Below the pieces are notes generated by a model. That model was not told where the DNA came from, ran no database searches, and was given only the letters and a program-made list of their open reading frames with translations. DNA of 64,000 bases from Cohnella abietis (lineage in GTDB: Bacteria > Bacillota > Bacilli > Paenibacillales > Paenibacillaceae). The stretch is from the NCBI RefSeq assembly GCF_004295585.1, contig NZ_AP019400.1:6812501-6876500 (forward strand), in the 5' to 3' direction. A program made the position numbers and the translations under genes. Shown here piece by piece: positions 1 through 44,964 of this stretch; the first letter of the stretch is position 1; each line of letters begins with the position of its first letter.

Positions 1-1650
1 CCACTGAAATCTACGGTCGCCCCCGATACTGGGCTTACCGTTGCATTCGCAGATACCGTCACTGTCGGCGCTAAGGTTGCCAAGTTCGTTCCATGCGACA
101 CTTCAATTGCGATCGTATGTGTCGCTGGATCAATCGTTGCCGCTCCTGTTTGCGCTGCTAACGCAAAACCCACAATTTCCTTCGCTCCGCTCAAAGGCGC
201 TTGCGCTTTACTTACGGTTACGGTCCATACTTGCGTATCACCGTTTTCGGCCTTCACCGTGTAGCTCACCGCTCCTCCGCTGAAATCTACGGTCGCACCC
301 GAAACTGGGCTTACCGTTGCATTCGCAGATACCGTCACTGTCGGCGTTAAGGTTGCCAAGTTCGTTCCGTGCGCCACTTCAATTGCGACCGTATGTGTCG
401 CTGGATCAATCGTTGCCACTCCTGTTTGCGCTGCTAGCGCAAAGCCCACAATTTCCTTCGCTCCGCTTAGGGGTGCTGGCGCTTTGCTTACCGTTACGGT
501 CCATACTTGCGTATCACCGTTTTCGGCCTTCACCGTGTAGCTCACAGCTCCACCACTGAAATCCACGGTCGCTCCCGACACTGGGCTTACCGTTGCATTC
601 GCAGATACCGTCACTGTCGGCGCTAAGCTTGCCAAGTTCGTTCCGTGCGCTACTTCAATCGCGACCATATGTGTAGCTGGATCAATCGTAGCTACCCCTG
701 TTTGCGCTACTAGCGCAAAGCTTACAATATCCTTCGCTCCGCTCAAAGGCGCTGGCGCTTTGCTTACCGTTACGGTCCATACTTGCGTATCGCCGTTTTC
801 GGCCTTCACCGTGTAGCTCACCGCTCCACCGCTAAAATCCACGGTCGCTCCCGATACTGGGCTTACCGTTGCATTCGCAGATACCGTCACTGTCGGCGCT
901 AAGGTCGACAGGTTCGTTCCATGCGACACCTCAATTGCGACCGTATGTGTCGCTGGATCAATTGTTGCCGCTCCTGTTTGCTCTGCTAGCGCGAAGCTCA
1001 CAATATTTTTCGCTCCGCTTAGGGGCGCTGGCGCTTTACTTACCGTTACGGTCCAAACCTGCGTATCACCGTTTTCGGCCTTCACTGTATAGCTTACCGC
1101 TCCACCGCTGAAATCCACGGCCGCACCCGAAACTGGGCTTACCGTTGCATTCGCAGATACCGTCACTGTCGGCGCTAAGGTTGCCAAGTTCGTTCCGTGC
1201 GCTACTTCAATCGCGACCGTGTGCGTTGCTGGATCAATCGTTGCCGCTCCTGTTTGCGCTGCTAGCGCGAAGCTCACAATATTTTTCGCTCCGCTTAGGG
1301 GCGCTGGCGCTTTACTTACCGTTACGGTCCAAACCTGCGTATCACCGTTTTCGGCCTTCACTGTATAGCTTACCGCTCCACCGCTGAAATCCACGGCCGC
1401 ACCCGAAACTGGGCTTACCGTTGCATTCGCAGATACCGTCACTGTCGGCGCTAAGGTTGCCAAGTCGGTTCCATGCGACACTTCAATCACGACCGTATGC
1501 GTCGCTGGATCAATCGTTGCCGCTCCTGTTTGCGCTGCTAGCGCGAAACCCACAATTTCCTTCGCTCCGCTTAGGGGCTCCGATGCCTCATTTACCGTTA
1601 CCGTATAATTTTTGATCGTCGTCCCGTCTTCCGCTGTAACCTTATAGATG
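1..1650 (-). repeat. 276-bp in-frame tandem repeats, about six copies
   Basis: A motif at about positions 25, 301, 577, 853, 1129 and 1405 recurs at exactly 276-bp spacing, and the sequence between is nearly identical in every copy. The unit is 92 codons of the surface protein, each containing the segments TIDPATHTVAIEV, LTPTVTVSANATVSPVSG and SYTVKAENGDTQVWTVTVSK. The left copy is cut by the window edge, so the true copy number is unknown. Confidence 0.95.
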
Positions 1651-20216: not shown

Positions 20217-23200
20217 TTATTCTAACGGCTGGCTAACCAGCATGTGATAAAGACCTTTATCCATCATTAGCTGCTCATGAGTACCAGACTCTGCGATAAC
20301 TCCCTGATCCAGTACGAGAATGCGGTCCGCATTCCTAATCGTACTTAGTCTATGTGCAATGATGAGGGTTGTTCGATCTTTAAGTATCGTAGCCATATTC
20401 CGTTGTATTATTTTCTCGGATTCATTGTCTAATGCACTCGTCGCTTCGTCGAATATCAGAATACGTGGATTGCCAATCAATGCCCGTGCAATGGTAATAC
20501 GCTGGCGCTGCCCACCGGATAGGCTTGCGCCCTTCTCCCCAACCTGTGTGTCGTACCCATTCGGGAATGTCATAATGAATTCGTGCGCTCCTGCAAGCAT
20601 GGCGGCCGCCATTACCTCATCCATCGAAGCATCGGGAATTTGATAAGCAATATTTTCATGAATCGTTCCGCTAAAAAGCCCCGCTTCCTGCTGGACAACT
20701 CCAATCTGCTTACGAAGCGTCTCTGCCTGCACCTGCTTCAGATCATGCCCATCAATCCGGACCACGCCGCTGCTTGGCGCATATAGCTTAAGGAGTAAAT
20801 TCGCCAATGTCGATTTCCCTGACCCGCTTCGCCCAACAATAGCAGTCGTTTGACCTGGAGCCATGTCGAAGGTAATGTTCTGCAATATATTCTTCCCGTC
20901 AGAATTATAGCGGAACGATACGCGTTCAAAAGTAATTGCCCCCGTAAGCTTCGGCAGCGCTGTCAGCCGGTTCAGATCGGCTTCCTCAACCTCCGTCTCG
21001 AAGACATCGTCAAGCCGCTCCAAGGCAATCCGTACGCCTTGAAACTCATCCCACATTCCGATTAGACCTAACGCCGCATTGGTAACGAGTGCAAACACCG
21101 CACTAAAAGCCATCAGCTCCCCGACGGTCATCTTATCCCCAATAATAAATACAGCCCCTGCATACAGTACGGTTATACCGCTTAAGGTTTGTAGCACTGT
21201 GGCGACAGAACCGGAGAAGATGTCGATTTTCCAACCCTTCATTTGTACAAAAGTAGATTGACGGAACCTCCCCTCCACCTTCTTCCTTACCTCGTCCTCG
21301 GCTGCGAGAGCTTTCACAGTGCGCATGGAGCCTATGGCTTCCACTAATACGTTCTGCAGTTCGACATCGGCTTGGAATTGCTTCCTGCTGTTACGCTTCA
21401 TAAGAGGAGTCACGATCAGCGTAAGAGCAATGAAACAGGGAATAAACGCCAAGGCGATCCAAGCCAACGTAACGCTATAGCTAAACATAATGACCATGTA
21501 TACGACGATCGTCATCACGTTCAATACAGCATTCATACTGTTCGTGACAAGAAATTGCCGGATGACCTGATTCTCCCCAGCGCGCGTCAAAATGTCTCCC
21601 ACTTTCCGGGTAGCGAAATAACGCATGGGTAAGCGAAATACATGCCGATAAAAACTCATGATCATGTCGATGTCAATTTTAATGAATGTCCCCGCTATGA
21701 CCCATTCCCTGATTGATTGAACGAGCATGGTAAGCAACGAGACCCCTAGCATAATGATCAGCATAATGCTCAGTTGATCATAGTTCTTGCCGACAAGCAC
21801 GCGATCGATCACCTGCTGTGTAAACAGGGGGAGCGCCAGGTTAATGACCTGCAATAGCAAGGTCAACCATAAGAGATGGATCAGCGCTCTCTTGTGGGAG
21901 GCGAAAAAAGCCCAGTAGCGCTTGAATGAAGGTTTCGACTCTTCTTGAGTGAAGAAAGCTTCGACAGGCTTCAGAAACACCGTATTCAGTGTCCATCCTT
22001 TTAGAAAATCGTCATGCGAATAAGTCAATAACCCCACAGCCGGATCGGCCACGGTCACGAATCGTTCGTCTACTTTAACAACCACGACATAATGATTGCC
22101 TTTCCAATGGGCGATAGCCGGTAGCGTATGCTCGGCGAGTCCCTTCAAGCTGCTGCGGACCGCGTCCGCTTGAAAGCCGATCGATTCGGCTGTTTTGCAC
22201 AGATTAAATAACGTGCTTCCCTCCAACCCGACTTGCGCTAGCTCCCTGAGCCGATGAATGCTCAAACGCTTGCCGTAATGCTCAGCGATCATCGTGAGGC
22301 AGGTTGGGCCACAGTCCATCTCACTTTGCTGAATGCGCACCGGGAACCGGTTCTTTAATCGCCAAGTCCTTCGCGCGCCGTACCGCTGCTGCTTCTCCTG
22401 TTCCGCTTCTTCTGCAAAAATTTCGGCAGCATTAACTTCGCTATCCTTCGCGTTAACGCTCGCTACCGCATTTAGAGTTGTTTCTGCACTCTGTAAATAA
22501 GCAGAAGCAATACCGATAATTGTTTCCCTAACCTTTGGATACTTAATAATCAACTTATCAAAGTCGCTCTTCGCCAGACTAAACACGGAAACCGCATCGT
22601 CCGCTATAACGCTGGCCTTACGAGGATCTCCGGTCAACAGCGCAAGTTCTCCGAAAAACTCCCCAGGCTTTATCGTATTAAGCTTGCGACCTCCTTCGCT
22701 ATCCTTCCTTACGGAAGCCGTACCGGAACGAAGGATATAGAACGCATCTCCCGTCTCCCCTTCACTGACAATCGCTTGCCCGGGTGCATATTCCTTCATA
22801 GCCATAATATCAAGCAGCGAGCGCAGCTCCTGATGATGTAGCGGAGCAAACAGCGCCGTCCGCTTCAGAAATGTACGCATCGCATCATCAGCCAATTGTT
22901 CAAGTAAGTACACCCTCAATTCAGGGTGCGCGTCAATCATTCGCATAAACATTGTCCTGGATAACCTTAGAAGCTCAAGCTTCGCCGAAGCCCTCAGCGC
23001 ATGCTCCTGAAATTGTTCATTCAACAGCGCTTCCTGTCCGAAATGCGAGCCCTCTTCTATTAATCCGAAATTAAGCTCTTTGCCATCCTCATCCTTACCA
23101 ATCATTCGTACTTTGCCCGCCAAGATGAGATGAAACGACTCTGCTCTTTCTCCAGCTTCAATAATCGTGTCTCCCATATGGAAAGAAAGCCTCTCAAAGG

Positions 23201-23285
23201 AGGCAAATAGCTCCTCTTTCTCCTGTGGCGACAGCACCTGAAAAATAGGGATGGTATCCAAAACGATATGATGTAAATCGCGCAT
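20217..23285 (-). CDS. Peptidase-C39 ABC exporter with two N-terminal cyclic-nucleotide-binding-like domains
   Basis: The 1,022-residue protein has two cNMP-binding-like beta-barrels (about 10-130 and 135-260; GDTIIEAGERAESFHLILAG and GQAIVSEGETGDAFYILRSG), then a linker and a C39 peptidase domain at about 315-445 (catalytic cysteine in QQSEMDCGPTCL, His in WKGNHYVVV, Asp in VADPAVG). Six transmembrane helices (about 465-740) and an ABC ATPase follow (Walker A GRSGSGKST, signature LSGGQRQR, Walker B ILIFDEATSALD). Such exporters cut leaders after Gly-Gly in the cytoplasm and export the core peptide. The cNMP domains recall cyanobacterial HetC-type exporters (established architecture, from memory), whereas ordinary bacteriocin exporters lack them. 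GGGAGG lies 7 bases before the ATG. It is the last gene of the cassette with the prolyl isomerase (28 bp upstream) and the double-glycine precursor. Confidence 0.93.
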   Translation of the reverse strand: MRDLHHIVLDTIPIFQVLSPQEKEELFASFERLSFHMGDTIIEAGERAESFHLILAGKVRMIGKDEDGKELNFGLIEEGSHFGQEALLNEQFQEHALRASAKLELLRLSRTMFMRMIDAHPELRVYLLEQLADDAMRTFLKRTALFAPLHHQELRSLLDIMAMKEYAPGQAIVSEGETGDAFYILRSGTASVRKDSEGGRKLNTIKPGEFFGELALLTGDPRKASVIADDAVSVFSLAKSDFDKLIIKYPKVRETIIGIASAYLQSAETTLNAVASVNAKDSEVNAAEIFAEEAEQEKQQRYGARRTWRLKNRFPVRIQQSEMDCGPTCLTMIAEHYGKRLSIHRLRELAQVGLEGSTLFNLCKTAESIGFQADAVRSSLKGLAEHTLPAIAHWKGNHYVVVVKVDERFVTVADPAVGLLTYSHDDFLKGWTLNTVFLKPVEAFFTQEESKPSFKRYWAFFASHKRALIHLLWLTLLLQVINLALPLFTQQVIDRVLVGKNYDQLSIMLIIMLGVSLLTMLVQSIREWVIAGTFIKIDIDMIMSFYRHVFRLPMRYFATRKVGDILTRAGENQVIRQFLVTNSMNAVLNVMTIVVYMVIMFSYSVTLAWIALAFIPCFIALTLIVTPLMKRNSRKQFQADVELQNVLVEAIGSMRTVKALAAEDEVRKKVEGRFRQSTFVQMKGWKIDIFSGSVATVLQTLSGITVLYAGAVFIIGDKMTVGELMAFSAVFALVTNAALGLIGMWDEFQGVRIALERLDDVFETEVEEADLNRLTALPKLTGAITFERVSFRYNSDGKNILQNITFDMAPGQTTAIVGRSGSGKSTLANLLLKLYAPSSGVVRIDGHDLKQVQAETLRKQIGVVQQEAGLFSGTIHENIAYQIPDASMDEVMAAAMLAGAHEFIMTFPNGYDTQVGEKGASLSGGQRQRITIARALIGNPRILIFDEATSALDNESEKIIQRNMATILKDRTTLIIAHRLSTIRNADRILVLDQGVIAESGTHEQLMMDKGLYHMLVSQPLE

Positions 23286-23313: not shown

Positions 23314-24090
23314 TTACTTCCCTGCCAAATAGCCCCATAGCTTAATATCAACTTCTGATCTTTTTACAGCCTCGTTCAGCCACTCTTCATAAATCAAATT
23401 AGCAAGCTTAATCCTAAGCTCCTCCGTAAGTGAAGCCGGAATCACTTCCCAAACATACAGTAATCGATAGTAAGACCCGGTTGGAAAAGGCCCTCCCGAT
23501 TGTCCTGCTTCCGAACTGAACACAAAAGACTCCTCTTCGCCGCTCATCTCAGATCGTCCAACCGCCCCGACGTAACCGCCGTCGTACTTGCTGCTACTGT
23601 TCAAACAATAGGTTTGCGCCAACTGATAGAACGGCTCGCCCTCTTCAAGCTGAAATAACAGCTCTTGCGCCTGCTCTCTGCTATCCACAATTAATTGAGA
23701 AAGAATCGCTTTATCGTAAGAGAGTCTATTTTTCAAATAGTAAGCGTCTATTCTGTCTTCCGTAACGATCCTCTTTACCTTCTCCGTCAGTAGCCGGGCT
23801 TTGGCCGACTCTAACAGATCTGCCGTCGTGAGCCCTCGCGCCTTGAGCCAAACCAACGTTTCAGCTACGCTGTATAACCCCAATTGCTGTCGCAGTTCAT
23901 TAGCTTTGGCCTTCCATTCTTGCTCATCGATCGATATCTTGTGCAGTTCCGCATACTCCAGCGTAACGGCTCTTCGAATGCTATCTTCGACAGCAGAAAA
24001 ACGCCCCTCCATGCACGCAAGCTTTAGTACATTGCGTAGACGCCATTCCGTACCGTTCACGTTAAATGCTACCAGCTCCATAACATCCAT
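23314..24090 (-). CDS. Cytoplasmic parvulin-type peptidyl-prolyl isomerase of the peptide cassette
   Basis: The 258-residue protein has a helical N-terminal region (1-110) and a PPIC/parvulin-like domain at about 115-215 (LSQLIVDSREQAQELLFQLE, PFYQLAQTYCLNSSSK, GGYVGAVGRSEMSGE, then a C-terminal YRLLYVWEV strand). This is the PrsA/SurA-like arrangement, but no signal peptide or lipobox is present, so the enzyme should be cytoplasmic. It is followed after 28 bp by the C39 exporter and preceded by the double-glycine precursor, whose core holds five prolines. I infer that it isomerises prolyl bonds of, or chaperones, the precursor before cleavage and export. The ATG at 24090 has GAGG 9 bases upstream and is preferred over one at 24096. 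Catalytic competence cannot be judged from the sequence alone. Confidence 0.82.
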   Translation of the reverse strand: MDVMELVAFNVNGTEWRLRNVLKLACMEGRFSAVEDSIRRAVTLEYAELHKISIDEQEWKAKANELRQQLGLYSVAETLVWLKARGLTTADLLESAKARLLTEKVKRIVTEDRIDAYYLKNRLSYDKAILSQLIVDSREQAQELLFQLEEGEPFYQLAQTYCLNSSSKYDGGYVGAVGRSEMSGEEESFVFSSEAGQSGGPFPTGSYYRLLYVWEVIPASLTEELRIKLANLIYEEWLNEAVKRSEVDIKLWGYLAGK

Positions 24091-24116
24091 AATCATTCAC
24101 CTCTTCGCTTTGAAAT

Positions 24117-24141
24117 GGAAAAAACCTAACGATAGTTAGGT
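24117..24141 (-). terminator. Attenuator between the precursor and the isomerase/exporter genes
   Basis: On the minus strand a perfect 7-bp stem (ACCTAAC / GTTAGGT) with a TATC loop is followed by six Ts. It lies 77 bp after the precursor stop and 26 bp before the isomerase start, so it should make precursor transcript more abundant than the two downstream genes. Confidence 0.8.
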
Positions 24142-24217
24142 CTCTCCATTTTAACAACCTGTATTTAATAGAATCTATTCCTTGCTACAATTCGAGGTTA
24201 TCGTTATAACTGGTGAT

Positions 24218-24382
24218 TTAGTTTGCGCCGCGATTACGACCAGCCCTGGGTGGAGCAAACGGAAGAGGGCTTCTCGGGTCAATTAGCCCTACGCCGCCAG
24301 TTGTTTCTTTCAATTCTTCCTCCGTCAACGGCTTTTCCAAATTTTCAAGCTCGATTTCTTTTGGTTGTTCTTCATTAGACAT
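24218..24382 (-). CDS. Double-glycine precursor peptide with a proline- and arginine-rich core
   Basis: A 54-codon gene runs from the ATG at 24382 (GGGAG 11 bases upstream) to a stop at 24218-24220. Residues 1-30 are an acidic leader ending PLTEEELKETTGG; counting back from the cleavage point it has Leu at -12, Glu at -8, Leu at -7 and Gly-Gly at -2/-1, the features read by C39 peptidases. The predicted core is 24 residues, starting VGLIDPRSPLPFAPPRAG and ending RNRGAN, with five prolines (36, 39, 41, 44, 45), four arginines, one Asp and no Cys or Trp; net charge is about +3. Two Pro-Arg or Pro-Pro-Arg groups recall proline-rich antimicrobial peptides. The context of dedicated C39 exporter, prolyl isomerase and LuxR regulator supports a secreted peptide. 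Antimicrobial activity is inference; a signalling role is equally possible. No modifying enzyme is encoded nearby. Confidence 0.85.
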   Translation of the reverse strand: MSNEEQPKEIELENLEKPLTEEELKETTGGVGLIDPRSPLPFAPPRAGRNRGAN

Positions 24383-26804: not shown

Positions 26805-27494
26805 ATTAATAAAATTCTAATAGTAGATGATGAACCCGAAATTCGTCAGTTAATTCGGATGCATTTAGAACAAGCTGAGCTTCAAGTTATTGAAGCAACT
26901 TCAGGACGACAAGCTATTCGATACTTACAGGAATATCCCATAGAATTATTGATACTGGACCTCATGATGGATGATGGCAACGGGTTTGAAGTACTGCAAT
27001 ATTTACGAAAAGAAAATGCTGGACCTTTAGTAATTGCGCTTAGTGCAAGACGAGAAGTGCAAGACAAAATCTTGACGCTCGGACTAGGTGCAGATGATTA
27101 TGTCACAAAGCCATTTAGCCCAGTGGAATTGGTTGCTCGTGTGCAAGCCCAGTTAAGAAGACATCGCCCTCATTCCTCTTATCCCGCCAAGATTCTACGT
27201 TTAAATAAATTAGTGCTGGATATCGATAATTATTGTTTACGAAATGATGGAAAATCGTTTACCGTAACTCCGGTAGAATGCCGACTTTTAGAATTGTTCA
27301 TGCAAAATCCAGACCGCGTTTTAACCAAAAGAGAAATTTACAAGCATGTTTGGAATCATGAAAATTTTGATGATAACAATTTAAGTGTATTTATAAGCAA
27401 GCTAAGAAGCATTCTTGAACCCACAGAGGGCTCACTTCATTACCTTCATACTATACGCGGGATCGGTTACAGATTCTCAGGAGATGGACAATGA
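26805..27494 (+). CDS. OmpR-family response regulator, apparent AUU start codon
   Basis: The receiver domain begins NKILIVDDEPEIRQLI, with the acidic pair, the phospho-acceptor Asp in LLILDLMMDD and the conserved Lys in DDYVTKPFSP; a winged-helix DNA-binding domain follows (VECRLLELFMQNPDRVLTKR, HTIRGIGYRFSG). The canonical first residues can be read only from an ATT at 26805: an in-frame TGA lies four codons upstream, and the nearest ATG (26794) is out of frame. GGAGGAGG sits 11 bases before the ATT, so initiation at AUU, as in infC, is plausible; a start at the ATG at 26859 would delete the acidic pocket. The 229-residue product overlaps the kinase gene by 4 bp (ATGA). A sequencing error changing ATG to ATT cannot be excluded. 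The target genes are unknown. Confidence 0.85.
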   Translation: MNKILIVDDEPEIRQLIRMHLEQAELQVIEATSGRQAIRYLQEYPIELLILDLMMDDGNGFEVLQYLRKENAGPLVIALSARREVQDKILTLGLGADDYVTKPFSPVELVARVQAQLRRHRPHSSYPAKILRLNKLVLDIDNYCLRNDGKSFTVTPVECRLLELFMQNPDRVLTKREIYKHVWNHENFDDNNLSVFISKLRSILEPTEGSLHYLHTIRGIGYRFSGDGQ

Positions 27495-28891
27495 AAAATC
27501 GAACAAAGCTTTGGCTGCTTATGCTTATTAGTGCAATCATTAGTATTCTTTTGTTTACTTCCATTAGCCTTGTTATAGGTAAAGGCGCTAAGGGTTATGG
27601 CTTGAACAGCCTGAACGCCATCGGGCATGAAGTTATTGATGCGGTTGCAAAGCATCAAGCTTTTCATGTCAAAAACATAACGCCAATACTAGATAACTTT
27701 CATAGCAAATATCCTGAAATTCGCTATGAATGGGTTTCAGCAGATGGATCGACGACATATGATACGTTCGGAGAAAAGAAGACTTATAATTTTGGTCAGC
27801 TTGCAGACCGATTGCGTTATATGCCTCAGAGCTTATGGGGGGTCGACGAAATAGTCACGCTTGTTTTTTCCATTAGCCAAGGTGACCAACCCTATTATTT
27901 GCTCATCAGCTTGTCCAGTAACGATATGAAAAGAGGGCAAGTTTTTATTTTCATGCGCGGCTTTAAGGTCTTCGCTAATCTTATGATTCCATTAGTCGTT
28001 GCTTTATTAATTCCTTATCTGCTATCTCTATGGTTTTTCTCTTCCATAAACAAACGCATTAATAAGCTCAACCATGCTCTAGGGCAGCTTAACCTCAAAA
28101 GTGAAATCACCGTACTAGAGAATACGAACAAGGATGAGATTGGCCAGCTCACTGCGCATTATAATGCCATGGCTCGCCGTATTCAGAATCAGGGTGAACA
28201 AATCAAGCAATTTGACGCCAGGCGAAATCTGCTGCTGTCTAATCTCTCCCATGATCTGCGCACCCCATTAACGATGATTTTAGGCTACGCAGAAACGATT
28301 CGCGCTGGATTGTATAAGGATGAGATGGAATTGCAAGCGAGTGCCAAGGTTTTGCTGCATCGCTCTCGTTATATCGATAAGCTGCTAGATCAATTGTTAG
28401 ATATTACTCGGCAGGATGAGGGGAATTTAGAGCTTCATGTTGAATCGCATAATCTATCTGAAATGATGCGGAAAGTGGCTGCAGATTACCTGATGTTTCT
28501 TGAGGGGCAAAACTTCACTGTTGAAATAAATATCCCTGACGAGGATATCCATGCCTGGGTTGATGCCTCCCTGATCGAACGCGCGCTGCGAAACCTGTTG
28601 GATAACGCGATTCGTTACGGATCAGAGGGCCATTATCTTGAGATTGGGCTTACAGAAAAGGATGATTCCCTATTCATGACGGTTATTGATCGAGGACGCG
28701 GAATTCCCTATCAGGACCAAAAGCATGTTTTCGAAAGATTCTATCGTGTCGATGGAAGCAGAAAAGGCGAAGGGCTCGGCATCGGACTATCTATTGTCCA
28801 AGAAATCATTGCCCTCCATGGTGGATCCATTACCTTGAAGAGTTTCCCTTTTGAAAGGACAGTATTCAAGATCCAGCTGCCAAACCATTAG
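27491..28891 (+). CDS. Sensor histidine kinase with HAMP domain
   Basis: The 466-residue protein has two transmembrane helices (about 7-30 and 157-180) around an extracellular sensor domain of about 125 residues. A HAMP domain follows (about 180-232), then HisKA with the phospho-acceptor His in SNLSHDLRTPLTMI (about residue 255) and a HATPase domain with N box ALRNLLDNAIRYG, G1 DRGRGIP and G2 GEGLGIGLSIV. The ATG overlaps the stop of the response-regulator gene, so the two form a classical pair of the PhoR/ResE type. No transporter or other effector gene is adjacent to hint at the signal. An 11-bp inverted repeat at 28956-28996 lies after the stop. Confidence 0.92.
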   Translation: MKNRTKLWLLMLISAIISILLFTSISLVIGKGAKGYGLNSLNAIGHEVIDAVAKHQAFHVKNITPILDNFHSKYPEIRYEWVSADGSTTYDTFGEKKTYNFGQLADRLRYMPQSLWGVDEIVTLVFSISQGDQPYYLLISLSSNDMKRGQVFIFMRGFKVFANLMIPLVVALLIPYLLSLWFFSSINKRINKLNHALGQLNLKSEITVLENTNKDEIGQLTAHYNAMARRIQNQGEQIKQFDARRNLLLSNLSHDLRTPLTMILGYAETIRAGLYKDEMELQASAKVLLHRSRYIDKLLDQLLDITRQDEGNLELHVESHNLSEMMRKVAADYLMFLEGQNFTVEINIPDEDIHAWVDASLIERALRNLLDNAIRYGSEGHYLEIGLTEKDDSLFMTVIDRGRGIPYQDQKHVFERFYRVDGSRKGEGLGIGLSIVQEIIALHGGSITLKSFPFERTVFKIQLPNH

Positions 28892-28996: not shown

Positions 28997-28999
28997 TAA

Positions 29000-29350
29000 A
29001 GTAACTTTAGTGGACTCACAGTACTCTAACGCCCTCGTAACCACTCAAAAAGTAACATTAGTGAACACCCAGTGCTCTATCACCCCTGCCAGCGAGTAAA
29101 AAGTAACATTAGTGAATCCACAGTTCTCTATCACCCCCACCAGCCCGTAAAAAGTAACATTAGTGAACCCACAGTTCTCTATCACCCCAGCCAGCGCAAA
29201 AAAAGTAACATTAGTGAACCCACAGTTCTCTAACGCCCTCGGCACAGCTCAAAAAGTAACAATAGTGAACGCCCAGTGCTCTATCACCCCTGCCAGCGAG
29301 TAAAAAGTAACATTAGTGAACCCACAGTTCTCTATCACCCCAACCAGTCC
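29000..29350. repeat. 51-bp tandem array, about seven copies
   Basis: AGTAACATTAGTGAA-type starts occur at about 29000, 29051, 29102, 29153, 29204, 29255 and 29306, spaced exactly 51 bp. Each unit also contains CACAGTTCTCTATCACCCC and CCAGC. Units differ by a few substitutions, and the first (AGTAACTTTAGTGGA) is the most diverged. The array is contiguous with no unique spacers, so it is not CRISPR. It lies between two plus-strand operons. Confidence 0.93.
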
Positions 29351-29380
29351 GACAAAGCTGTCGTAAACAACAATTTTATT

Positions 29381-30337: not shown

Positions 30338-33300
30338 TTACCTACTCTTTTGCGCCAATACTTTCAGAAGAACGGTAACAGCCTCTGCTCTTGTCGTTCC
30401 AGCATCAGGCTCGAATTTATTCGCTCCTTTTCCATTAATAAAGCCAAACTTTCTGACGGCTGAGACGGCGCCTTTCGCCCATGCCGGAATAGCTTTGTCG
30501 TCCACAAAGTCGGTTGAGGAGTTCGCTTCTAACGATAGACCAGTTGCATTAGCAATAATCATTGCCATCTCTGCGCGAGTAATGACTGCATCCGGACGGA
30601 AGGACCCATCTGCATTGCCTTTTATATATCCAGCTTGCACGGCTTGGGCCACTGCGCCCTTCGCCCATGACCCAATTTTGTCCACATCAGTGAATGCCAG
30701 CGATGCGCTTGTATCTGATCCTTGAGGCTTTAACGTATTCATCAGCATCACTGTAAATTCCGCCCGTGTCACGATGCGATTCGGTCTGAACGTTCCATCT
30801 AGATAACCGGTAACAATTCCGCTTTCTATAGCTTGCTTGATCGCAGTCTCCGCCCAATGTCCGTCAATGTCGCTCAAATGTTTCGTCGGTCCGGGATGTT
30901 CTTGTTCATTCAATGATTGACCTGTGGCAAATACAGCAAACTTCGCAAAGTGATTGACCTTTACCGTAATTTGATTACCGGTTATTAATCCTCCAATCAC
31001 TTCTATCCAGCTCTTTTTCACTTCATCATAATAGAAGACAGCCGCCGTTTGGCCACTCTTCAAGCTGGCAGGATCAAACGCAAAGGAAATCGAGACCGGA
31101 TTATTAAAGTTTTCCCTGAAATTTTTCATGATCTCATATATCGCAGTAACCAGAACTTCATTTTTCGTAAGAAGATTTTGCGTGTCCGTCAATTTGGTGA
31201 TCGTTATTTTCAACTCTTTATCGGTAGCATTAGCCGGTATTGAGACAAAGATTTCCTTCTCCAAACTAACCTCTCCCGCTTTACCTGCCGGAACCGTAAG
31301 CTTCCCATCCGTCGAGCTTACATCCTGTTCGCTTGGAAACGTAAAACCGCCGCCGTATGATGGTGGTGCCGCATTCACGGAAACCGTGTACGTTACTTTC
31401 GTAGTGCCATCCTGCGCTACTACAATTACCTTGTTACCAGAAATTAAAGTGGTTGCTACAATCGTTCCGTCGGCATCATAGATTTCAAAAGTCGCACCTG
31501 CTGCCTGTGTGATCGCTGCCTTCAAAGCAGCTATCGTTGTCCCGTACGGAATATTCGAGATGCTTTCATTCCCCGTTCCTCCCACAGTTACTGTCCCTAT
31601 GGTAGATGTTATCGTGGCAACATGGCTTAACGCCGCACTATGCGTCACAGTTACTACCCAGTTCTGCTTAGTACCATCCTGTGCAATAACGATATATGTC
31701 ACTGGAGATGTGAAATCGTTCTTCGTCGTTCTGCTCACTTGAGCTGTAGTGCCGACCTGTGCCGAGGCTCCTGCGGACAATGCGAACGTCGCTACCAACT
31801 CTCTTACATCCGTGCCGTGAGGAACGGTTATCGCGATATTCGTTCCGTTAATCGTACCCAACACAGGTGGTGTCAGCTCCGCAAAGCCAAAGGCTGTCAC
31901 ATCCTTCGCGCTGCTTGGGGCTGCCGTTACGGTTACCGTGTACGCTTTCGTCGTCCCATCCTGTGCAGTGACGATATATGTCACCGGAGATGTAAAATCA
32001 TTCTTCGTCACACCACTCACTTGCGTTGTGGTACCCACCTTAGCCGAGGCTCCTGCGGATAACGTGAACGTCGCTACCAGCCCTCTTACATCCGTGCCAT
32101 GAGGAACGATTAATGAAATGTTCGTACCGTTAATTGTACCCGCCACCGGTGGTGTCAACTCCGCAAAGCCAAAGGATGTCACATCCTTCGCGCTACTCGA
32201 AGCTTCTGTTACGGTTACTGTGTATGCTTTCGTCGTGCCATCCTGTGCAGTGACGGTATATGTCACCGGAGAAGTGAAATCGTTCCTCGTCGCACCACTC
32301 ACTTGAGCTGTAGTGCCGACCTGCGCCGAGGCTCCTGCGGATAACGTGAACGTCGCTACCGACTCTCTTACATCCGTGCCGTGAGGAACGGTTAGCGTGA
32401 TATTCGTACCGTTAATCGCACCCGCCACTGGTGGTGTCAGCTCCGCAAAGCCAAAGGATGTCACATCCTTCGCGCTACTCGAAGCTTCTGTTACGGTTAC
32501 TGTGTATGCTTTCGTCGTCCCATCCTGTGCAGTGACAATATATGTCACCGGAGATGTGAAATCGTTCGTCGTCGTTCCGCTCACTTGGGCTGTAGTGCCG
32601 ACCTGTGCCGAGGCTCCTGCGGATAACGTGAACGTGGCCTTCAACCCATTCGGATTGGTGCCATTCTTCACTTCAATCGTTACCGTATTCGTGGTTGTAT
32701 TGATCGTTGCTGGTTTGCTTTGCGCAACGAAGCTGAATGCAGTGATATCATTGGCACTACTCGGCGGCGCAACAGTCACGGTAACCAACCAGTTTCGCGT
32801 TGTACCGTTCTCCGCTTTCACGATATAAGTGACCGGGTTCGTAAAATTGTTGGCAGTCGTCCCGCTTTTTTGAGATGTCCCGTTTACCCTTGCAGCGGAC
32901 GCTGGAGATAATGTGAATGTGGCAATCAGATTAGTCACATTCGTTCCATACTTTACTTCAATCGCGACCGTATGTGCTGTCGTGTTGATCGTTGCAGGCT
33001 TGGTTTGTGAAGAAAAACTGAATGCTGTAATGTCTTTTGCGTTGCTTGATTCAATTGACACAGAGACAATCCATTCTTGGACGCTACCATCTGCTGCAGT
33101 TACTAAATACTTAACTGGGGTTCTGAAGTCGTTGGCAGTCGTCCCGCTCACTTGATTAACTGTGCCAATTTTCGCTGAAGCTTCAGGTGAAAGGGAGAAT
33201 GTGGCCTTCAAATTAGACAAGCTGGTCAAAGGGATTCCGTACACGACTTCAACATCAACGGTGTGATCGATCGTACTGATCGTAGCCGCTTTGGTCAGTG

Positions 33301-35386
33301 TAACTGTGCTTAATGAGAATGCAGTAATATCCTTCTCACTGCTTTTTGTCACGGTTACTGTCCAGTTCTGACTGCTTCCATCCCCTGCCTTTACTATATA
33401 TGTAACTGGAGTTGTGAAATTATTAGCACTCGACCCACTTACTTGATCAACAGTACCCACCCGAGCGGAGGCTTCTGGAGATAACGTAAATGTAGGCTTC
33501 AAATTGGTTACATTAGTAGCTCGCGCCACTTGAATCACGACAGTGTGTGCGGTCTTATTAATTGTTGCCGCTCCAGTCTGCTCTGCCAAACTAAATGCCG
33601 TAATATCATTCGCACTATTCGCTATGACGGACACGATATATGTAACTTTCGTTATTCCATCCGCTGCGGTTACAATGACTTTCTTCCCTGACGTTAGATT
33701 CGTTGCAACGTTTACTCCGTCTGCATCGAAAATTTCAAACGTTGCATTCGTCGCGGGTGTGATTTCTTCCTTTAATATGGCTAAAGTTGTTCCATATGGA
33801 ATGTTGGTTATCGTTTCAGTTGTTGTTCCGCCGGTACTCACGATTCCGATACCGGAAGTCAAAGTAGCAGATGAGCTTTGGGCTGCCCATTGCGCATATA
33901 AGGTTGTATAGGGCATGATCTCGAAAGAACCACTATAGCTCTTTCCATTTCCATTTTCTTGTGTGTTCCATCCAATAAAGGTGTAACCCGTCCTTACTAA
34001 ATTTAATGACCCCGCATATACGCTAGCCGTTTCTCCAGGTAAATATAAAATGGAATCGATCGGAACGGTCCCGCCGGTGTTTCCGTTTCCGTCATATTTC
34101 AATTGAAACAAAAAATCTTGCAAATAAGGATATCCGCCGTTACGCAATGGATCTATCCCCCAAAGGGTATTAAAGTCCCAGCCATCGACAGGTCCCTTCA
34201 TATTTTCGTCTAAGCTAATGCTGCCTATATTATTCCCTTCACCATTACTGGTCAAAGGGCCTATTGGAGCCAAATCTCCACTCACATTCCCACTGGTGTA
34301 ACTATTGCTATATGATCCTTCACTATCACTATAAGCAAAACCAATCAAGCCACCCACAAAACTATATCCGCTCACATTGCCAGTGGTAAAACTGTCTCTT
34401 ATGATGCCTTTAACTTCAAGATTGCTGACCAATCCACCTACATGCTGTAATCCTATTACATCACCTGTGGAATAACTTTTACTTATCGATCCAAAATTGA
34501 AGCCAGTTAATCCACCCGTACTAAAAGTGCCATTAACCTTGCCTGTCGCGAAACTGTTGTTTATATAAGAATCTGTAGAATTGCTCCCAACCAGACCTCC
34601 TATACTCTGACCCTCTATCATTTCCCCTGTCGCGTAGCTGTAGCTGATCGTTCCATCATTTTCACCTACTAAACCACCTACTGCATAATCTCCGTGCACA
34701 TCCCCCGTAGCGTAGCTGTAGTTGATCGACCCTTTATTCTTGCCCGCTAGACCGCCTGAAGCATACGAGCTTCCATTCACGCTAACATTAGCGTAACTAT
34801 TGTCGATGGTTGCACTTACATTAGTAATTGTAACGCCGTTATCGCCTACCAAGCCGCCTACTCCATCTTTTCCGGTTACTTTGCCAGTAACATAACTGTT
34901 TGAAACCTTCCCTTTATTTGCACCCACCAAACCACCTACATAATTATTGCCCGTAACATCAACATTCTCCAGCTTCATATTTGTAATGACACTTTCCGTA
35001 TTTGTCAATCCGAATAACCCTAAGTTGTTTCCATTACTATCTATTTTCAGCCCATTAATTACAAATCCGTTGCCGTCGAAATTCCCGCTAAATGGACTTC
35101 TGCGGTCATTTCCAATAGGAGTCCAGTCGTCTTTGTAGCTGCTAGTGCTCAAATCAATATTTTTAGTCAGCTTAAAATAAAGATTTTTATCTAGGTAATT
35201 TCCCCTGATCTGGTTAAGTTGATCGGCAGTTCCAATGAGATAGGGACTACTAGAGGTACCGCTTCCCAAAAACTCATTTGCCGCAAACGCTTTGCTGCTT
35301 CCGAAAATCCCTTCCGGCACGACAGCACCCAATCCTAGTAGTATCGTCAAAATTATAAACAAAGATTTTTTCCCTAATTTACGCAT
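30338..35386 (-). CDS. GLUG / InlB-repeat / DUF5018-like surface protein with three SLH domains
   Basis: The 1,682-residue protein has a signal peptide (about 1-36, ending SSKAFA) and a GLUG module at about 40-415 (PYLIGTADQLNQIRG, then many VGGLVG and NSYATG motifs). One InlB-type/Listeria-Bacteroides repeat follows at about 419-498 (YDGNGNTGGTVPID, TGYTFIGWNTQ, LYAQWAA), then about eight DUF5018- or cadherin-like units to residue 1,340 (AKDITAFSF, TVTAQDGTTKAYTVTVTEAS), three of which are near-identical 93-residue copies. The domain shared with the protein at 9082 occupies 1,355-1,490, and three SLH domains fill 1,495-1,680. It is secreted and probably held on the wall polymer; adhesion is the likely role. 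AGAGGAGAAT precedes the ATG. It is a paralogue of the protein at 1-5731. Confidence 0.9.
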   Translation of the reverse strand: MRKLGKKSLFIILTILLGLGAVVPEGIFGSSKAFAANEFLGSGTSSSPYLIGTADQLNQIRGNYLDKNLYFKLTKNIDLSTSSYKDDWTPIGNDRRSPFSGNFDGNGFVINGLKIDSNGNNLGLFGLTNTESVITNMKLENVDVTGNNYVGGLVGANKGKVSNSYVTGKVTGKDGVGGLVGDNGVTITNVSATIDNSYANVSVNGSSYASGGLAGKNKGSINYSYATGDVHGDYAVGGLVGENDGTISYSYATGEMIEGQSIGGLVGSNSTDSYINNSFATGKVNGTFSTGGLTGFNFGSISKSYSTGDVIGLQHVGGLVSNLEVKGIIRDSFTTGNVSGYSFVGGLIGFAYSDSEGSYSNSYTSGNVSGDLAPIGPLTSNGEGNNIGSISLDENMKGPVDGWDFNTLWGIDPLRNGGYPYLQDFLFQLKYDGNGNTGGTVPIDSILYLPGETASVYAGSLNLVRTGYTFIGWNTQENGNGKSYSGSFEIMPYTTLYAQWAAQSSSATLTSGIGIVSTGGTTTETITNIPYGTTLAILKEEITPATNATFEIFDADGVNVATNLTSGKKVIVTAADGITKVTYIVSVIANSANDITAFSLAEQTGAATINKTAHTVVIQVARATNVTNLKPTFTLSPEASARVGTVDQVSGSSANNFTTPVTYIVKAGDGSSQNWTVTVTKSSEKDITAFSLSTVTLTKAATISTIDHTVDVEVVYGIPLTSLSNLKATFSLSPEASAKIGTVNQVSGTTANDFRTPVKYLVTAADGSVQEWIVSVSIESSNAKDITAFSFSSQTKPATINTTAHTVAIEVKYGTNVTNLIATFTLSPASAARVNGTSQKSGTTANNFTNPVTYIVKAENGTTRNWLVTVTVAPPSSANDITAFSFVAQSKPATINTTTNTVTIEVKNGTNPNGLKATFTLSAGASAQVGTTAQVSGTTTNDFTSPVTYIVTAQDGTTKAYTVTVTEASSSAKDVTSFGFAELTPPVAGAINGTNITLTVPHGTDVRESVATFTLSAGASAQVGTTAQVSGATRNDFTSPVTYTVTAQDGTTKAYTVTVTEASSSAKDVTSFGFAELTPPVAGTINGTNISLIVPHGTDVRGLVATFTLSAGASAKVGTTTQVSGVTKNDFTSPVTYIVTAQDGTTKAYTVTVTAAPSSAKDVTAFGFAELTPPVLGTINGTNIAITVPHGTDVRELVATFALSAGASAQVGTTAQVSRTTKNDFTSPVTYIVIAQDGTKQNWVVTVTHSAALSHVATITSTIGTVTVGGTGNESISNIPYGTTIAALKAAITQAAGATFEIYDADGTIVATTLISGNKVIVVAQDGTTKVTYTVSVNAAPPSYGGGFTFPSEQDVSSTDGKLTVPAGKAGEVSLEKEIFVSIPANATDKELKITITKLTDTQNLLTKNEVLVTAIYEIMKNFRENFNNPVSISFAFDPASLKSGQTAAVFYYDEVKKSWIEVIGGLITGNQITVKVNHFAKFAVFATGQSLNEQEHPGPTKHLSDIDGHWAETAIKQAIESGIVTGYLDGTFRPNRIVTRAEFTVMLMNTLKPQGSDTSASLAFTDVDKIGSWAKGAVAQAVQAGYIKGNADGSFRPDAVITRAEMAMIIANATGLSLEANSSTDFVDDKAIPAWAKGAVSAVRKFGFINGKGANKFEPDAGTTRAEAVTVLLKVLAQKSR
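31790..32640 (-). repeat. 279-bp in-frame repeats of the surface protein
   Basis: The segment around CTCTTACATCCGTGCC recurs at about 31801, 32083 and 32362 with roughly 279-bp spacing, in highly similar surroundings. The units encode 93-residue domains with VPHGTDVRxxVATFTLSAGA. They are related in fold, not in close sequence, to the 276-bp repeats at 1-1650. Confidence 0.85.
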
Positions 35387-42008: not shown

Positions 42009-42596
42009 ATGTTGAGCTCTAAGCTCACAATATAACGAAATCGATGTCAGCTCGATTTGTTTGCGAAAGTTTAAAAATTTTTCTTGCTCAATAATCCCGA
42101 CCCTGCTATTATAAAGGAGCATGATTTTTGGAAAGCTAATATTTGAATTATCTAGGATCTTTCCAAGCAGATAATCTTTGACCACTTCCATTTGAAGTTA
42201 AGGCCATACGGACAGCCGGGTCAAATGCCGATTGGCAACTTTCGTTGCCTTATTGATTGAGTTAAAAGCTCAAATTTTATAAGTTGGTTACTTTACAACC
42301 AGTGCATACGCACATAACTTGTGAAACGGTCAATAAGAGTGGTAAAAGTAATTATTTGCTATATAGACTCTGATCCTACATGATATATTTGAATATTAAA
42401 GGCCTTTCCATGCAACTATGCAGTTTTTGGCTGAATGACGAGCTCTTAAGAGGTTTGTCCAGTCATGCTTATGTGGATAGTCTTATTATTTAATTATATC
42501 AGAGCAAGTGTGATGCGCATGGTGCGTGTTTCGCTTGCTTTTTTTGTTGATTTTTTACACTTTTTAGAAAATTTACTTGGGATAGGGGATTGAACA
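42009..42596 (+). other. Long leader or intergenic region before the carboxyspermidine operon
   Basis: No gene is supported in these 588 bp. Small hairpins are present: TGAGCT CTA AGCTCA directly after the upstream stop, GGCAAC TTTC GTTGCC near 42235, and a terminator at 42503-42546 that lies only 50 bp before the next start. The layout could be an attenuated leader or simply a long untranslated tail. Confidence 0.45.
42503..42546 (+). terminator. Terminator or attenuator just before the carboxyspermidine dehydrogenase gene
   Basis: AGCAAG (42503-42508) pairs with CTTGCT (42534-42539), with internal pairing GCGCA / TGCGT, and is followed by a run of about eight Ts. The GGGATAGGGG ribosome binding site and ATG follow within 55 bp. 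Confidence 0.7.
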
Positions 42597-43835
42597 ATGG
42601 GAAAAGCACTTATCATTGGCGCCGGAGGCGTAGCATCAGTAGCAATTCATAAATGCGTACAAAACAGCGAGGTTTTCGAAGAAATCTGCATCGCTAGCCG
42701 TACGAAATCCAAATGCGATGATCTAAAAGCAAAATTGGACGGCGGAAAAACCAAAATTACGACTGCACAGGTCGATGCAGACAACGTGGATGAGCTAATC
42801 GCTCTGATCAATGAAGTCAAACCTGATATTGTCATGAACCTGGCTTTGCCTTACCAGGATTTAACGATCATGGATGCTTGCCTAGCCACCAAGACAAACT
42901 ATATGGATACGGCAAACTACGAGCCGGAAGATACGGCGAAATTCGAATACAAATGGCAATGGGATTACCGCGAACGCTTTGAAAAAGCTGGCATCACAGC
43001 TCTTCTGGGCAGTGGATTCGACCCAGGCGTAACTGGCGTATTTTCCGCTTATGCGCTGAAGCACTATTTTGACGAAATTGAATATATCGACATTCTCGAT
43101 TGCAACGGCGGGGATCACGGCTATCCTTTCGCAACTAACTTCAACCCGGAAATCAACATCCGTGAAGTATCCGCTAACGGACGCTATTGGGAAAACGGAC
43201 AATGGATCGAAACAAAGCCAATGGAAATCAAACGCGGCTATAACTTCGCTGAAGTTGGCGAGAAGGACATGTACTTGCTTTACCATGAAGAGCTTGAATC
43301 CCTTGTGGAAAATATACCTGGACTGAAGCGTATCCGTTTCTTCATGACTTTCGGCCCAAGCTATCTCATGCACTTAAAGGCGCTTGAGAACGTAGGAATG
43401 ACTTCCATCGAACCGATCGAATACGAAGGAAAGCAAATCATTCCACTTCAATTCCTGAAGGCCCTTCTTCCGGACCCTGCTTCCTTGGGACCACGTACGG
43501 TCGGAAAAACAAACATCGGCTGTATCTTCAAAGGAAAAAAAGACGGTCAAGACAAGACTTACTATGTTTACAATGTTTGCGACCACCAAGAGTGCTATAA
43601 GGAAGTGGGCTCCCAGGCCATCTCCTATACAACTGGCGTTCCTGCCATGATCGGCGCAGCAATGGTCATGACTGGAAAATGGAACAAACCGGGCGTATTT
43701 AATATCGAAGAGTTCGATCCAGATCCATTCATGGAAGAGCTGAACAAATGGGGTCTTCCTTGGGTAGAAGACTTTAACCCGGTGCTTGTTGATGCTTTGC
43801 CTGAAGAAGCTAAAAAGCCGGAGCTCGTTCGCTAA
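42597..43835 (+). CDS. Carboxy(nor)spermidine dehydrogenase, saccharopine dehydrogenase family
   Basis: The 412-residue enzyme begins with a Rossmann nucleotide site (ALIIGAGGVASVAIHKC) and continues CIASRTKSKCDDL, PDIVMNLALPYQDLTIMDAC, TNYMDTANYE and LLGSGFDPGVTGVFSAYA, all typical of the saccharopine dehydrogenase-like carboxyspermidine synthases. It joins aspartate semialdehyde to putrescine (or diaminopropane) reductively with NADPH to give carboxyspermidine (or carboxynorspermidine). The decarboxylase gene follows one base later, completing the alternative polyamine route that avoids S-adenosylmethionine decarboxylase. AGGGGAT precedes the ATG. Which diamine is used cannot be read from the sequence; spermidine formation is the usual outcome outside Vibrio. 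Confidence 0.92.
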   Translation: MGKALIIGAGGVASVAIHKCVQNSEVFEEICIASRTKSKCDDLKAKLDGGKTKITTAQVDADNVDELIALINEVKPDIVMNLALPYQDLTIMDACLATKTNYMDTANYEPEDTAKFEYKWQWDYRERFEKAGITALLGSGFDPGVTGVFSAYALKHYFDEIEYIDILDCNGGDHGYPFATNFNPEINIREVSANGRYWENGQWIETKPMEIKRGYNFAEVGEKDMYLLYHEELESLVENIPGLKRIRFFMTFGPSYLMHLKALENVGMTSIEPIEYEGKQIIPLQFLKALLPDPASLGPRTVGKTNIGCIFKGKKDGQDKTYYVYNVCDHQECYKEVGSQAISYTTGVPAMIGAAMVMTGKWNKPGVFNIEEFDPDPFMEELNKWGLPWVEDFNPVLVDALPEEAKKPELVR

Positions 43836-43836
43836 G

Positions 43837-44964
43837 ATGCGGTTCGAGGAGTTACCGACACCCTGTTACGTAGTCGATGAAGCGCTCATCGAAAAGAACC
43901 TTAAAATCCTGAATGGCGTTATGCAGCGTACGGGAGCCAAAATCGTGCTGGCGCAAAAAGCTTTTTCCATGACTGCTATGTACCCCCTCATTGGAAAATA
44001 CTTAAACGGCACGACTGCGAGTGGTTTGTTCGAAGCGCGGCTGGCTCACGAGGAAATGGGCAAAGAAAATCACGTCTTTGCCCCTGCCTATCGTGAAGAT
44101 GAAATTGACGAAATTATATCCATTTGCGATCATATTATCTTCAATTCCTTCTCCCAGTTGGAAAAATATAAAGCGAAGGCTCTTGCAGCAGGCAGAAAAG
44201 TGGGCCTTCGCATCAATCCGGAATGCTCGACGCAAGAAGGACATGAAATCTATGATCCGTGTTCACCAGGGTCAAGATTTGGCGTAAAACAAGAGGAATT
44301 CCGTCAGGAGCTACTTGAAGGCGTCTCGGGATTGCACTTCCATACCCTTTGCCAGCAGAACTCGGATGATTTGGAAACAACGCTGAATGCGGTCGAGGAA
44401 AAATTCGGGCAATGGCTGCCACAGATGGAATGGGTCAATTTCGGTGGCGGTCACCATATTACAAGAGACGACTATGATATCCCGAAGCTTGAAGCTTGCA
44501 TTAAGCGAATGCAGGATAACTACGGATTAGTAGTCTACCTTGAACCCGGAGAAGCAGTAGCACTCAATGCAGGCTATCTGGTTACCTCGGTACTGGATAT
44601 CCACCGGAACGGCATAGAGATTGCTATCGTGGATACGTCGGCTACATGTCATATGCCAGATGTTCTGGAAATGCCGTATCGTCCGCCGCTTTTCGGTTCA
44701 GGCGAAGCCGGAGAAAAGCCACACACCTATCGGCTTGGTGGTCCGACCTGCCTTACGGGCGATTTAATCGGAGACTATTCCTTCGATCAGCCCTTAAAGA
44801 ATGGCGACAGATTAGTGTTTGGAGATATGGCGATCTACTCCATGGTCAAAACCAACACCTTCAACGGCATGCCGCTACCGGCAATCGCCGTGCAAGAAAA
44901 AGACGGCAATTGCCGCGTCGTTCGCGAGTTCGGCTATCAGGATTTCAAGATGCGACTAGCTTAA
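43837..44964 (+). CDS. nspC: Carboxynorspermidine/carboxyspermidine decarboxylase
   Basis: The 375-residue protein is an alanine-racemase-fold PLP decarboxylase of the NspC family: FEELPTPCYVVDEALIEKNL, the PLP lysine in IVLAQKAFSM, LRINPECSTQ, SGLHFHTLCQQNSDDL, WVNFGGGHHITRDDYD, EPGEAVALNAGYL and the active-site segment GPTCLTGDLIGDYSF. It decarboxylates carboxyspermidine or carboxynorspermidine in the cytoplasm. The ATG at 43837 starts one base after the stop of the dehydrogenase gene, and its AGGAG-like signal lies within that gene. A terminator follows at 44974. Confidence 0.94.
   Translation: MRFEELPTPCYVVDEALIEKNLKILNGVMQRTGAKIVLAQKAFSMTAMYPLIGKYLNGTTASGLFEARLAHEEMGKENHVFAPAYREDEIDEIISICDHIIFNSFSQLEKYKAKALAAGRKVGLRINPECSTQEGHEIYDPCSPGSRFGVKQEEFRQELLEGVSGLHFHTLCQQNSDDLETTLNAVEEKFGQWLPQMEWVNFGGGHHITRDDYDIPKLEACIKRMQDNYGLVVYLEPGEAVALNAGYLVTSVLDIHRNGIEIAIVDTSATCHMPDVLEMPYRPPLFGSGEAGEKPHTYRLGGPTCLTGDLIGDYSFDQPLKNGDRLVFGDMAIYSMVKTNTFNGMPLPAIAVQEKDGNCRVVREFGYQDFKMRLA

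What the first reader, a model, noticed from the sequence alone, without database searches (positions are those of the whole stretch)
24218..24382. Proline- and arginine-rich core resembling proline-rich antimicrobial peptides
The predicted core (residues 31-54) has five Pro and four Arg in 24 residues, includes DPRSP and APPRAG, lacks Cys and has net charge about +3. Bacterial proline-rich peptides of this type made by a GG-leader route are not something I know as described; animal PrAMPs of similar composition block the ribosome exit tunnel. The function is inference.
Basis: partly seen in the sequence, partly recalled or inferred. Interest (0 to 1): 0.85.

Follow-up and report, generated by a model that had tools for sequence, protein, structure and literature searches.

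The report
Variable core of a secreted peptide
The window holds a real gene for a small peptide that the cell very probably trims at Gly-Gly and exports; its proline/arginine-rich tail is a fast-changing cargo that near relatives replace with quite different sequences, so it looks like one of a widespread family of secreted signal- or bacteriocin-like peptides rather than a bacterial version of animal proline-rich antibiotics.

Summary
In detail: a 54-codon minus-strand ORF (24382-24218) encodes an acidic Gly-Gly leader and the core VGLIDPRSPLPFAPPRAGRNRGAN (5 Pro, 4 Arg, no Cys, +3). It lies in a unit of LuxR/STAND regulator, peptide, conserved hairpin, SurA/PrsA-like partner and exporter (two cNMP domains, intact C39 peptidase, ABC). 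The leader occurs in 36 of 395 related genomes and tracks the partner (31 of 32). The PrAMP reading is not supported. The two nearest orthologous loci (partner 85% identical) carry largely unrelated cores with one and three Pro; between them, leader and spacer DNA are 92-93% identical but the core 58%. Pro is 21%, PRP is absent, and the partner lacks the parvulin His. Sister loci carry cores from a conserved tripeptide (RFI) to ~80-aa proline-rich modules, two of which match a Sec-type secreted protein of Variovorax. The window's short core is nested among the long ones and probably derives from one. Best reading: a rapidly diverging secreted peptide, more likely a signal than a ribosome poison; function is inferred. 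Closest known: the rosaritide (mir) cluster minus its synthetase, and HetC-type exporters. New variant of a known kind.

The parts
24293..24382 (-). Gly-Gly leader (residues 1-30) of the precursor peptide
   Evidence: Translation; leader family profile E 2.9e-12; 36 of 395 genomes
24218..24292 (-). Core (residues 31-54, VGLIDPRSPLPFAPPRAGRNRGAN) and stop codon; sequence not conserved in orthologous loci except a C-terminal R-x-x-N
24110..24153 (-). Conserved hairpin with U-run between peptide and partner gene (probable attenuating terminator or processing hairpin); inverted repeat centred on CCTAACTATCGTTAGG, outer stem with an A-U to C-G exchange in P. foliorum
   Evidence: Fold z = -3.9 for the spacer; alignment of four loci. 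The consensus scanner did not list it
23314..24096 (-). SurA/PrsA-like (PpiC-related) partner protein, 260 aa, no signal peptide seen, both parvulin active-site His replaced
   Evidence: Pfam Rotamase hits; TIGR04500 44.6 bits, below its cut-off of 180; PrsA in PDB E 1e-6; active-site columns
20217..23285 (-). Exporter: two N-terminal cNMP-binding domains, C39 peptidase with Cys/His/Asp intact, ABC transmembrane and ATPase domains (PCAT), 1022 aa
   Evidence: Pfam; catalytic residues conserved in 32 of 32 homologues; only full-length match in the genome
24508..26559 (-). STAND/MalT-like LuxR-family regulator, 683 aa, same strand, upstream of the peptide; present in the three short-core loci, not beside the long-core loci
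   Evidence: Pfam AAA_16 and GerE; synteny

Best explanation
The ORF is the precursor of a small secreted peptide. The acidic 30-residue leader is probably held by the SurA/PrsA-like partner and presented to the cNMP-C39-ABC exporter, which cuts after Gly-Gly and exports the 24-residue core. A hairpin behind the peptide gene probably keeps peptide mRNA in excess over partner and exporter mRNA. The LuxR/STAND protein probably controls the unit. The core is a quickly changing, mildly cationic cargo. By its pattern (constant leader and machinery, replaced core, no immunity gene and no modification enzyme seen, membrane sensor kinases beside sister units) it most likely acts outside the cell as a strain- or species-specific signal or self-recognition peptide. 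In the window lineage it appears to be a shortened descendant of an ~80-aa proline-rich secreted module, which would explain the prolines without any ribosome-binding role. SHOWN by sequence: gene, leader family, partner and exporter with intact protease triad, synteny, core divergence, nesting among long cores. INFERRED: cleavage site, export, chaperone role, attenuation, signalling.
For: Leader and partner co-occur in 31 of 32 partner-bearing genomes, with 5 leader-only genomes among 395 (Fisher p about 1e-39). C39 Cys, His and Asp are present in 32/32 exporters. Core against surroundings: P. foliorum vs P. eucommiae leader 92.2%, spacer 92.9%, partner 90.7%, exporter 93.2%, core 58% at the DNA level (core vs spacer p = 1.6e-8). 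Core class follows the exporter tree with the minimum of 3 changes, and the short window class lies inside the long-core clade (100/100 support for each). Signal-like evidence in sister classes: the RFI tripeptide shows synonymous changes at all three codons and no amino-acid change in 6 loci, and the 17-aa ...KPIIKKVTIRP core has pN/pS 0.31. All 7 such loci adjoin a kinase/regulator pair; the kinase examined is of 7TMR-DISM type, and HisKA_7TM kinases lie beside RFI-class loci. A two-cNMP exporter with a LuxR-type gene, a small GG-containing peptide and the partner recurs on a cyanobacterial plasmid. HetC, a cNMP-C39-ABC exporter, is needed for cell differentiation and thought to export a signal peptide (PMC10986499).
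Against: Only three short-core orthologues exist in the collections searched, so diversifying selection cannot be told from relaxed constraint. No receptor is identified for the window's core; the adjacent two-component pair (26859-28891) is not kept in P. foliorum or P. eucommiae. Bacteriocins also show constant leaders with varied cores. Partner and exporter score below the curated NCBIfam cut-offs of the families they match.
Confidence: 0.5

Rival explanations
1. A narrow-spectrum bacteriocin of unknown target, not a PrAMP: the exported cationic core attacks close competitors, and its fast change reflects an arms race.
For: Cationic core (+3; family median +3) after an acidic leader; cores replaced between near loci; weak leader matches to class IIb bacteriocin models (TIGR03949, 17.0 bits, below cut-off).
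Against: No candidate immunity gene in the unit or its orthologues; sister units make a conserved tripeptide or a conserved 17-mer beside sensor kinases; no amphipathic or Cys-bridged bacteriocin pattern in the window core.
Confidence: 0.25
2. The core is a decayed or shortened remnant of an ~80-aa proline-rich secreted module; the prolines are leftovers and the short product has little or no function of its own.
For: Five orthologous loci carry 72-87 aa cores with 19-23% Pro, and the short-core clade is nested among them. The window core start VGLIDPRSPLPFAPP resembles VGYIDPRATGQFGYMPP of G353 (shuffle p 0.016, not corrected for multiple comparisons). One orphan leader in G234 ends after AGK.
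Against: Leader, RBS, hairpin, partner and exporter are all intact; the reading frame is open in all three short-core loci; a C-terminal R-x-x-N is kept (NRGAN, SRSSN, SRSSN).
Confidence: 0.17
3. A bacterial proline-rich antimicrobial peptide that enters competitors and blocks the ribosome or DnaK.
For: Five Pro, four Arg, net +3, no Cys; GG-leader export route.
Against: Pro 20.8%, below the 25% criterion, and no PRP motif (PMC7736402). Nearest orthologous cores have 1 Pro of 23 and 3 of 26, and prolines are not kept in place except possibly one. Same machinery serves proline-free RFI cores. Partner lacks PPIase catalytic His. No peptide importer or resistance gene in the unit.
Confidence: 0.04
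4. The peptide is post-translationally modified by an enzyme encoded elsewhere and is a true RiPP, as in the rosaritide (mir) cluster.
For: The mir cluster has precursor, PpiC-like MirC and PCAT, plus a graspetide synthetase that needs MirC (PMC13097080).
Against: No ATP-grasp or other modifying enzyme in the window's unit, and none apparent in orthologous loci by reading-frame survey (where most neighbours were not family-scanned). The core has no Thr, a single Ser, one Asp, no Glu and no Lys, so no graspetide ring pattern.
Confidence: 0.04

Closest known systems
Rosaritide (mir) cluster of Micromonospora rosaria: MirA precursor, MirC PpiC-like partner, MirD PCAT (PMC13097080)
   Same: Small precursor, SurA-like divergent PpiC partner that seems to act as a chaperone, peptidase-containing exporter
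   Different: Mir also has the graspetide synthetase MirB and ring-forming residues; the window unit has neither, and its exporter carries two cNMP domains (MirD is filed under TIGR03796, whose cut-off this exporter does not reach)
HetC of Nostoc PCC 7120, a cNMP-C39-ABC exporter (PMC10986499)
   Same: N-terminal cyclic-nucleotide-binding region, intact C39 protease, ABC exporter, proposed signal-peptide substrate
   Different: HetC has no GG-leader gene beside it and is described with one cNMP domain; here the substrate gene and a SurA-like partner are adjacent
GG-peptide exporters for signals and bacteriocins in Gram-positives, e.g. pneumococcal rtg (PMC7018657, abstract only)
   Same: GG leader, dedicated PCAT, cargoes for communication or competition
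   Different: No SurA-like partner or cNMP domain is named in what was read; regulators differ (Rgg versus STAND-LuxR)
Proline-rich antimicrobial peptides (apidaecin, oncocin, Bac7; definition in PMC7736402)
   Same: Cationic, linear, Cys-free, some Pro and Arg
   Different: Pro below 25%, no PRP, prolines not conserved, different precursor and export route

Membership tests
Proline-rich antimicrobial peptide (PMC7736402, Box 1) | At least 25% proline | tested here: not met
   5 of 24 = 20.8%
Proline-rich antimicrobial peptide (PMC7736402, Box 1) | Net charge at least +1 | tested here: met
   +3
Proline-rich antimicrobial peptide (PMC7736402, Box 1) | PRP motif (indicative, not essential) | tested here: not met
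   Absent from this core and from all 53 family cores tabulated
Proline-rich antimicrobial peptide (PMC7736402, Box 1) | Antimicrobial, with intracellular target DnaK or 70S ribosome | not testable with these tools
   Needs synthetic peptide
GG-leader peptide exported by a PCAT | Leader with spaced hydrophobic positions and Gly-Gly before the core | tested here: met
   L12, L15, L19, L24, G29-G30; G29-G30 invariant in 26 leaders
GG-leader peptide exported by a PCAT | Cognate exporter with active C39 domain | tested here: met
   Gene two downstream; catalytic Cys/His/Asp present in 32 of 32; activity itself not assayed
GG-leader peptide exported by a PCAT | Cleavage after GG and export | not testable with these tools
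   Needs mass spectrometry
TIGR04500 PpiC-related peptide maturation protein | Score above the curated cut-off (180 bits) | tested here: not met
   44.6 bits: related, not a member
Graspetide (rosaritide type) | ATP-grasp synthetase in the cluster | tested here: not met
   None among the family-scanned genes of the unit
Active parvulin PPIase (partner protein) | Two conserved active-site His | tested here: not met
   First His replaced in 32 of 32 homologues, second in 30 of 32; aligned to the genome's own His-bearing PrsA-like protein
Class IIb bacteriocin (lactobin A/cerein 7B) | TIGR03949 above cut-off | tested here: not met
   17.0 bits against 21.5, residues 19-34 only

The most novel reading that the evidence does not exclude
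Paenibacillaceae use one platform (acidic GG leader, catalytically dead SurA-like partner, cNMP-gated C39 exporter) to send out interchangeable messages. These range from a tripeptide (RFI), which would be among the smallest encoded pheromones, to ~80-aa proline-rich modules shared with proteobacterial secreted proteins. The window's peptide is the hypervariable recognition branch of that platform.
Probability: 0.25. Interest if true: 0.7.

Novelty: new variant of a known kind. Interest (0 to 1): 0.45.

Why it matters
If the reading is right, a little-noticed export platform in Paenibacillaceae carries a family of short messages, one of them three residues long, with a non-catalytic prolyl-isomerase-like protein as dedicated escort. 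That would give MirC-like partner proteins a role that does not depend on any modifying enzyme, and would offer HetC-like cNMP exporters a system in which substrate and exporter are neighbours. For the finding as given, it shows that a Pro/Arg-rich composition in one fast-changing core is weak ground for a PrAMP.

Tried and rejected
PrAMP: rejected on proline content, motif, lack of conservation, and proline-free sister cores. Partner as an active prolyl isomerase acting on the core's prolines: rejected, active-site His missing and Pro-free cores have the same partner. Class IIb bacteriocin by model: below cut-off. Phage origin: no relative in phage records or viral contigs; one weak PHROG match only. 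Structure of the partner: single-sequence prediction failed (mean pLDDT 40) and was not used. Descent of the window core from a given long core: best shuffle p 0.016 for G353, and p below 0.002 for a C-terminal match to an orphan peptide of G182, neither convincing after some 40 comparisons; the DNA alignment does not settle it. Literature: searches combining PrAMP with double-glycine and on Paenibacillus GG peptides found nothing that describes this; the library holds open-access papers only.

Full report
1. Observation. The minus-strand ORF 24382-24218 encodes 54 residues, MSNEEQPKEIELENLEKPLTEEELKETTGG|VGLIDPRSPLPFAPPRAGRNRGAN. The stated composition is right: 5 Pro, 4 Arg, no Cys, net +3.

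2. Surroundings. On the same strand, in order: a 683-aa STAND/LuxR regulator (26559-24508), the peptide, a 121-nt spacer, a 260-aa SurA/PrsA-like protein (24096-23314) and a 1022-aa exporter with two cNMP-binding domains, a C39 peptidase and an ABC part (23285-20217). No modifying enzyme, HlyD-type adaptor or evident immunity gene lies in the unit. The spacer contains a hairpin with a U-run (fold z -3.9) that is kept in four loci, with an A-U to C-G exchange in P. foliorum. A terminator or processing site that lowers partner/exporter expression is inferred; the consensus scanner did not list it. The exporter is the only one of its kind in the genome: the other 20 matches align to the ABC part only.

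3. Family. A search of 395 related genomes with the peptide, then with a profile of 26 leaders, found the leader in 36 genomes. The partner protein was found in 32 (E <= 1e-16). Both occur together in 31, partner alone in 1, leader alone in 5 (p about 1e-39). Orphan leaders elsewhere in some of these genomes suggest that one exporter may serve several precursors. In the window's own genus (37 genomes) only this genome has the close orthologue. P. foliorum and P. eucommiae, which the genome set places in another family, have it at 85% (partner) and about 93% (exporter). This points to horizontal transfer.

4. Cores. 53 tabulated precursors fall into classes: RFI/RFF/KRAL/KRYSY/...SRASY; a 17-mer of the type DLHTGTKPIIKKVTIRP; Arg-rich tails such as GGRIKRRGR and RGRQRRRGA; the window's short class; and 72-87 aa proline-rich cores in G118, G201, G340, G342 and G353. 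Two of the long cores (G118, G201) contain a module GLYVxVxDGxIxVxNxxGxxNFSAGQFGxxxxPxxPPVVxPxNPGxxFTPPPxF. It matches a Variovorax plasmid protein with a Sec-type N-terminus, next to a FecR-domain protein and a two-partner secretion system (62.5% over 56 aa, E 6e-9). So one module appears to be sent out by two different routes in two phyla. The core class follows the exporter tree with the least possible number of changes, and the window's short class (100/100) lies inside the long-core clade (100/100); G201 as exact sister of the short class has only 80/65 support. A short core derived from a long one is the simplest history.

5. Selection. P. foliorum and P. eucommiae share 92.2% of leader DNA, 92.9% of the non-coding spacer and 90.7-93.2% of partner and exporter, but 58% of the core (core vs spacer p 1.6e-8). 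Window versus P. foliorum: leader 78.9%, spacer 79.3%, core 63.1% with 20 gap columns. Identities of this size for such short, gapped pieces are close to what forced alignment gives, though codon-shuffle z of 2.3 to 4.0 shows a trace of common descent, mostly the C-terminal NRGAN/SRSSN. Prolines are not kept, except possibly one Pro-Arg shared with P. foliorum. With three loci I cannot tell diversifying selection from loss of constraint. By contrast the RFI tripeptide has synonymous changes at all three codons and no replacement among six loci, and the 17-mer class has pN/pS 0.31 (pairs are not independent). Arg is enriched in the last five residues (28 of 38 cores of 10 or more residues; shuffles 16.5 +/- 2.5; 19 of 29 without the IRP class, p 0.0065).

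6. Mechanism. The C39 Cys, His and Asp are intact in 32 of 32 exporters. The first parvulin His is replaced in 32 of 32 partners and the second in 30 of 32. The partner is therefore most likely a chaperone or leader-binding escort, as proposed for MirC of the rosaritide cluster, whose two domains are both needed for peptide maturation (PMC13097080). HetC, a cNMP-C39-ABC exporter, binds ppGpp in vitro and is thought to export a signal peptide (PMC10986499). All seven IRP-class loci adjoin a sensor kinase and response regulator; the one scanned has a 7TMR-DISM sensor, and HisKA_7TM kinases adjoin RFI-class loci. A Leptolyngbya plasmid has a LuxR-type gene, an 81-aa GG-containing peptide with a Cys-rich tail, partner, MauE/DoxX protein, exporter and HlyD in a row; by eye that exporter's C39 region lacks the canonical DCG motif. 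The signalling reading rests on these associations and on the lack of an immunity gene; it is inference.

7. PrAMP. Under the published definition (PMC7736402) the core fails the 25% proline criterion (20.8%), has no PRP motif, meets the charge criterion, and cannot be tested here for activity or target.

8. Verdict. A real, well-embedded peptide gene; the PrAMP interpretation is not supported; the wider family, with a conserved tripeptide cargo, is more interesting than the finding itself. I found no description of this Paenibacillaceae family in the open-access library, which is not proof that none exists.

Noticed in passing
L110, L111, L116, L128, L130, L141 (GG-leader ORFs ending GGRFI): Precursors whose whole predicted core is the tripeptide Arg-Phe-Ile, with synonymous changes at all three codons and no replacement; some loci of this class adjoin HisKA_7TM histidine kinases. 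A possible tripeptide signal.
   Followed up: partly
L059:6368-6703, L063:6392-6736 versus L099:5932-6258: A proline-rich ~55-aa module (GLYVxVxDG...NFSAGQFG...NPGxxFTPPPxF) is found behind a GG leader in Paenibacillaceae and behind a Sec-type signal in Variovorax, there next to a FecR-domain protein and a two-partner secretion system.
   Followed up: partly
window 42179-42231 (+): Full-length Rfam match to the Streptococcus SpF59 (ldcC) RNA (72.3 bits, cut-off 37.2), upstream of ORFs at 42597-43835 and 43786-44964 that look like carboxynorspermidine (polyamine) genes; a possible leader RNA or riboswitch.
   Followed up: no
window 28998-29357: Tandem array with a ~51-base unit (5.8-6.7 copies, 77-83% matches; also read as 102 and 153), open in several frames (e.g. 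...ENCGFTNVTFYSLAGVI...), between a histidine kinase and a small protein gene.
   Followed up: no
window 26859-28891 (+): OmpR-type response regulator and histidine kinase divergent from the peptide unit's LuxR gene; not kept beside the P. foliorum and P. eucommiae orthologues.
   Followed up: partly
window 4-1578, 31674-32635 and 60471-61451: Long-period (276, 282 and 384 base) tandem repeats; the second lies inside the SLH-domain surface protein gene 30338-35386.
   Followed up: no
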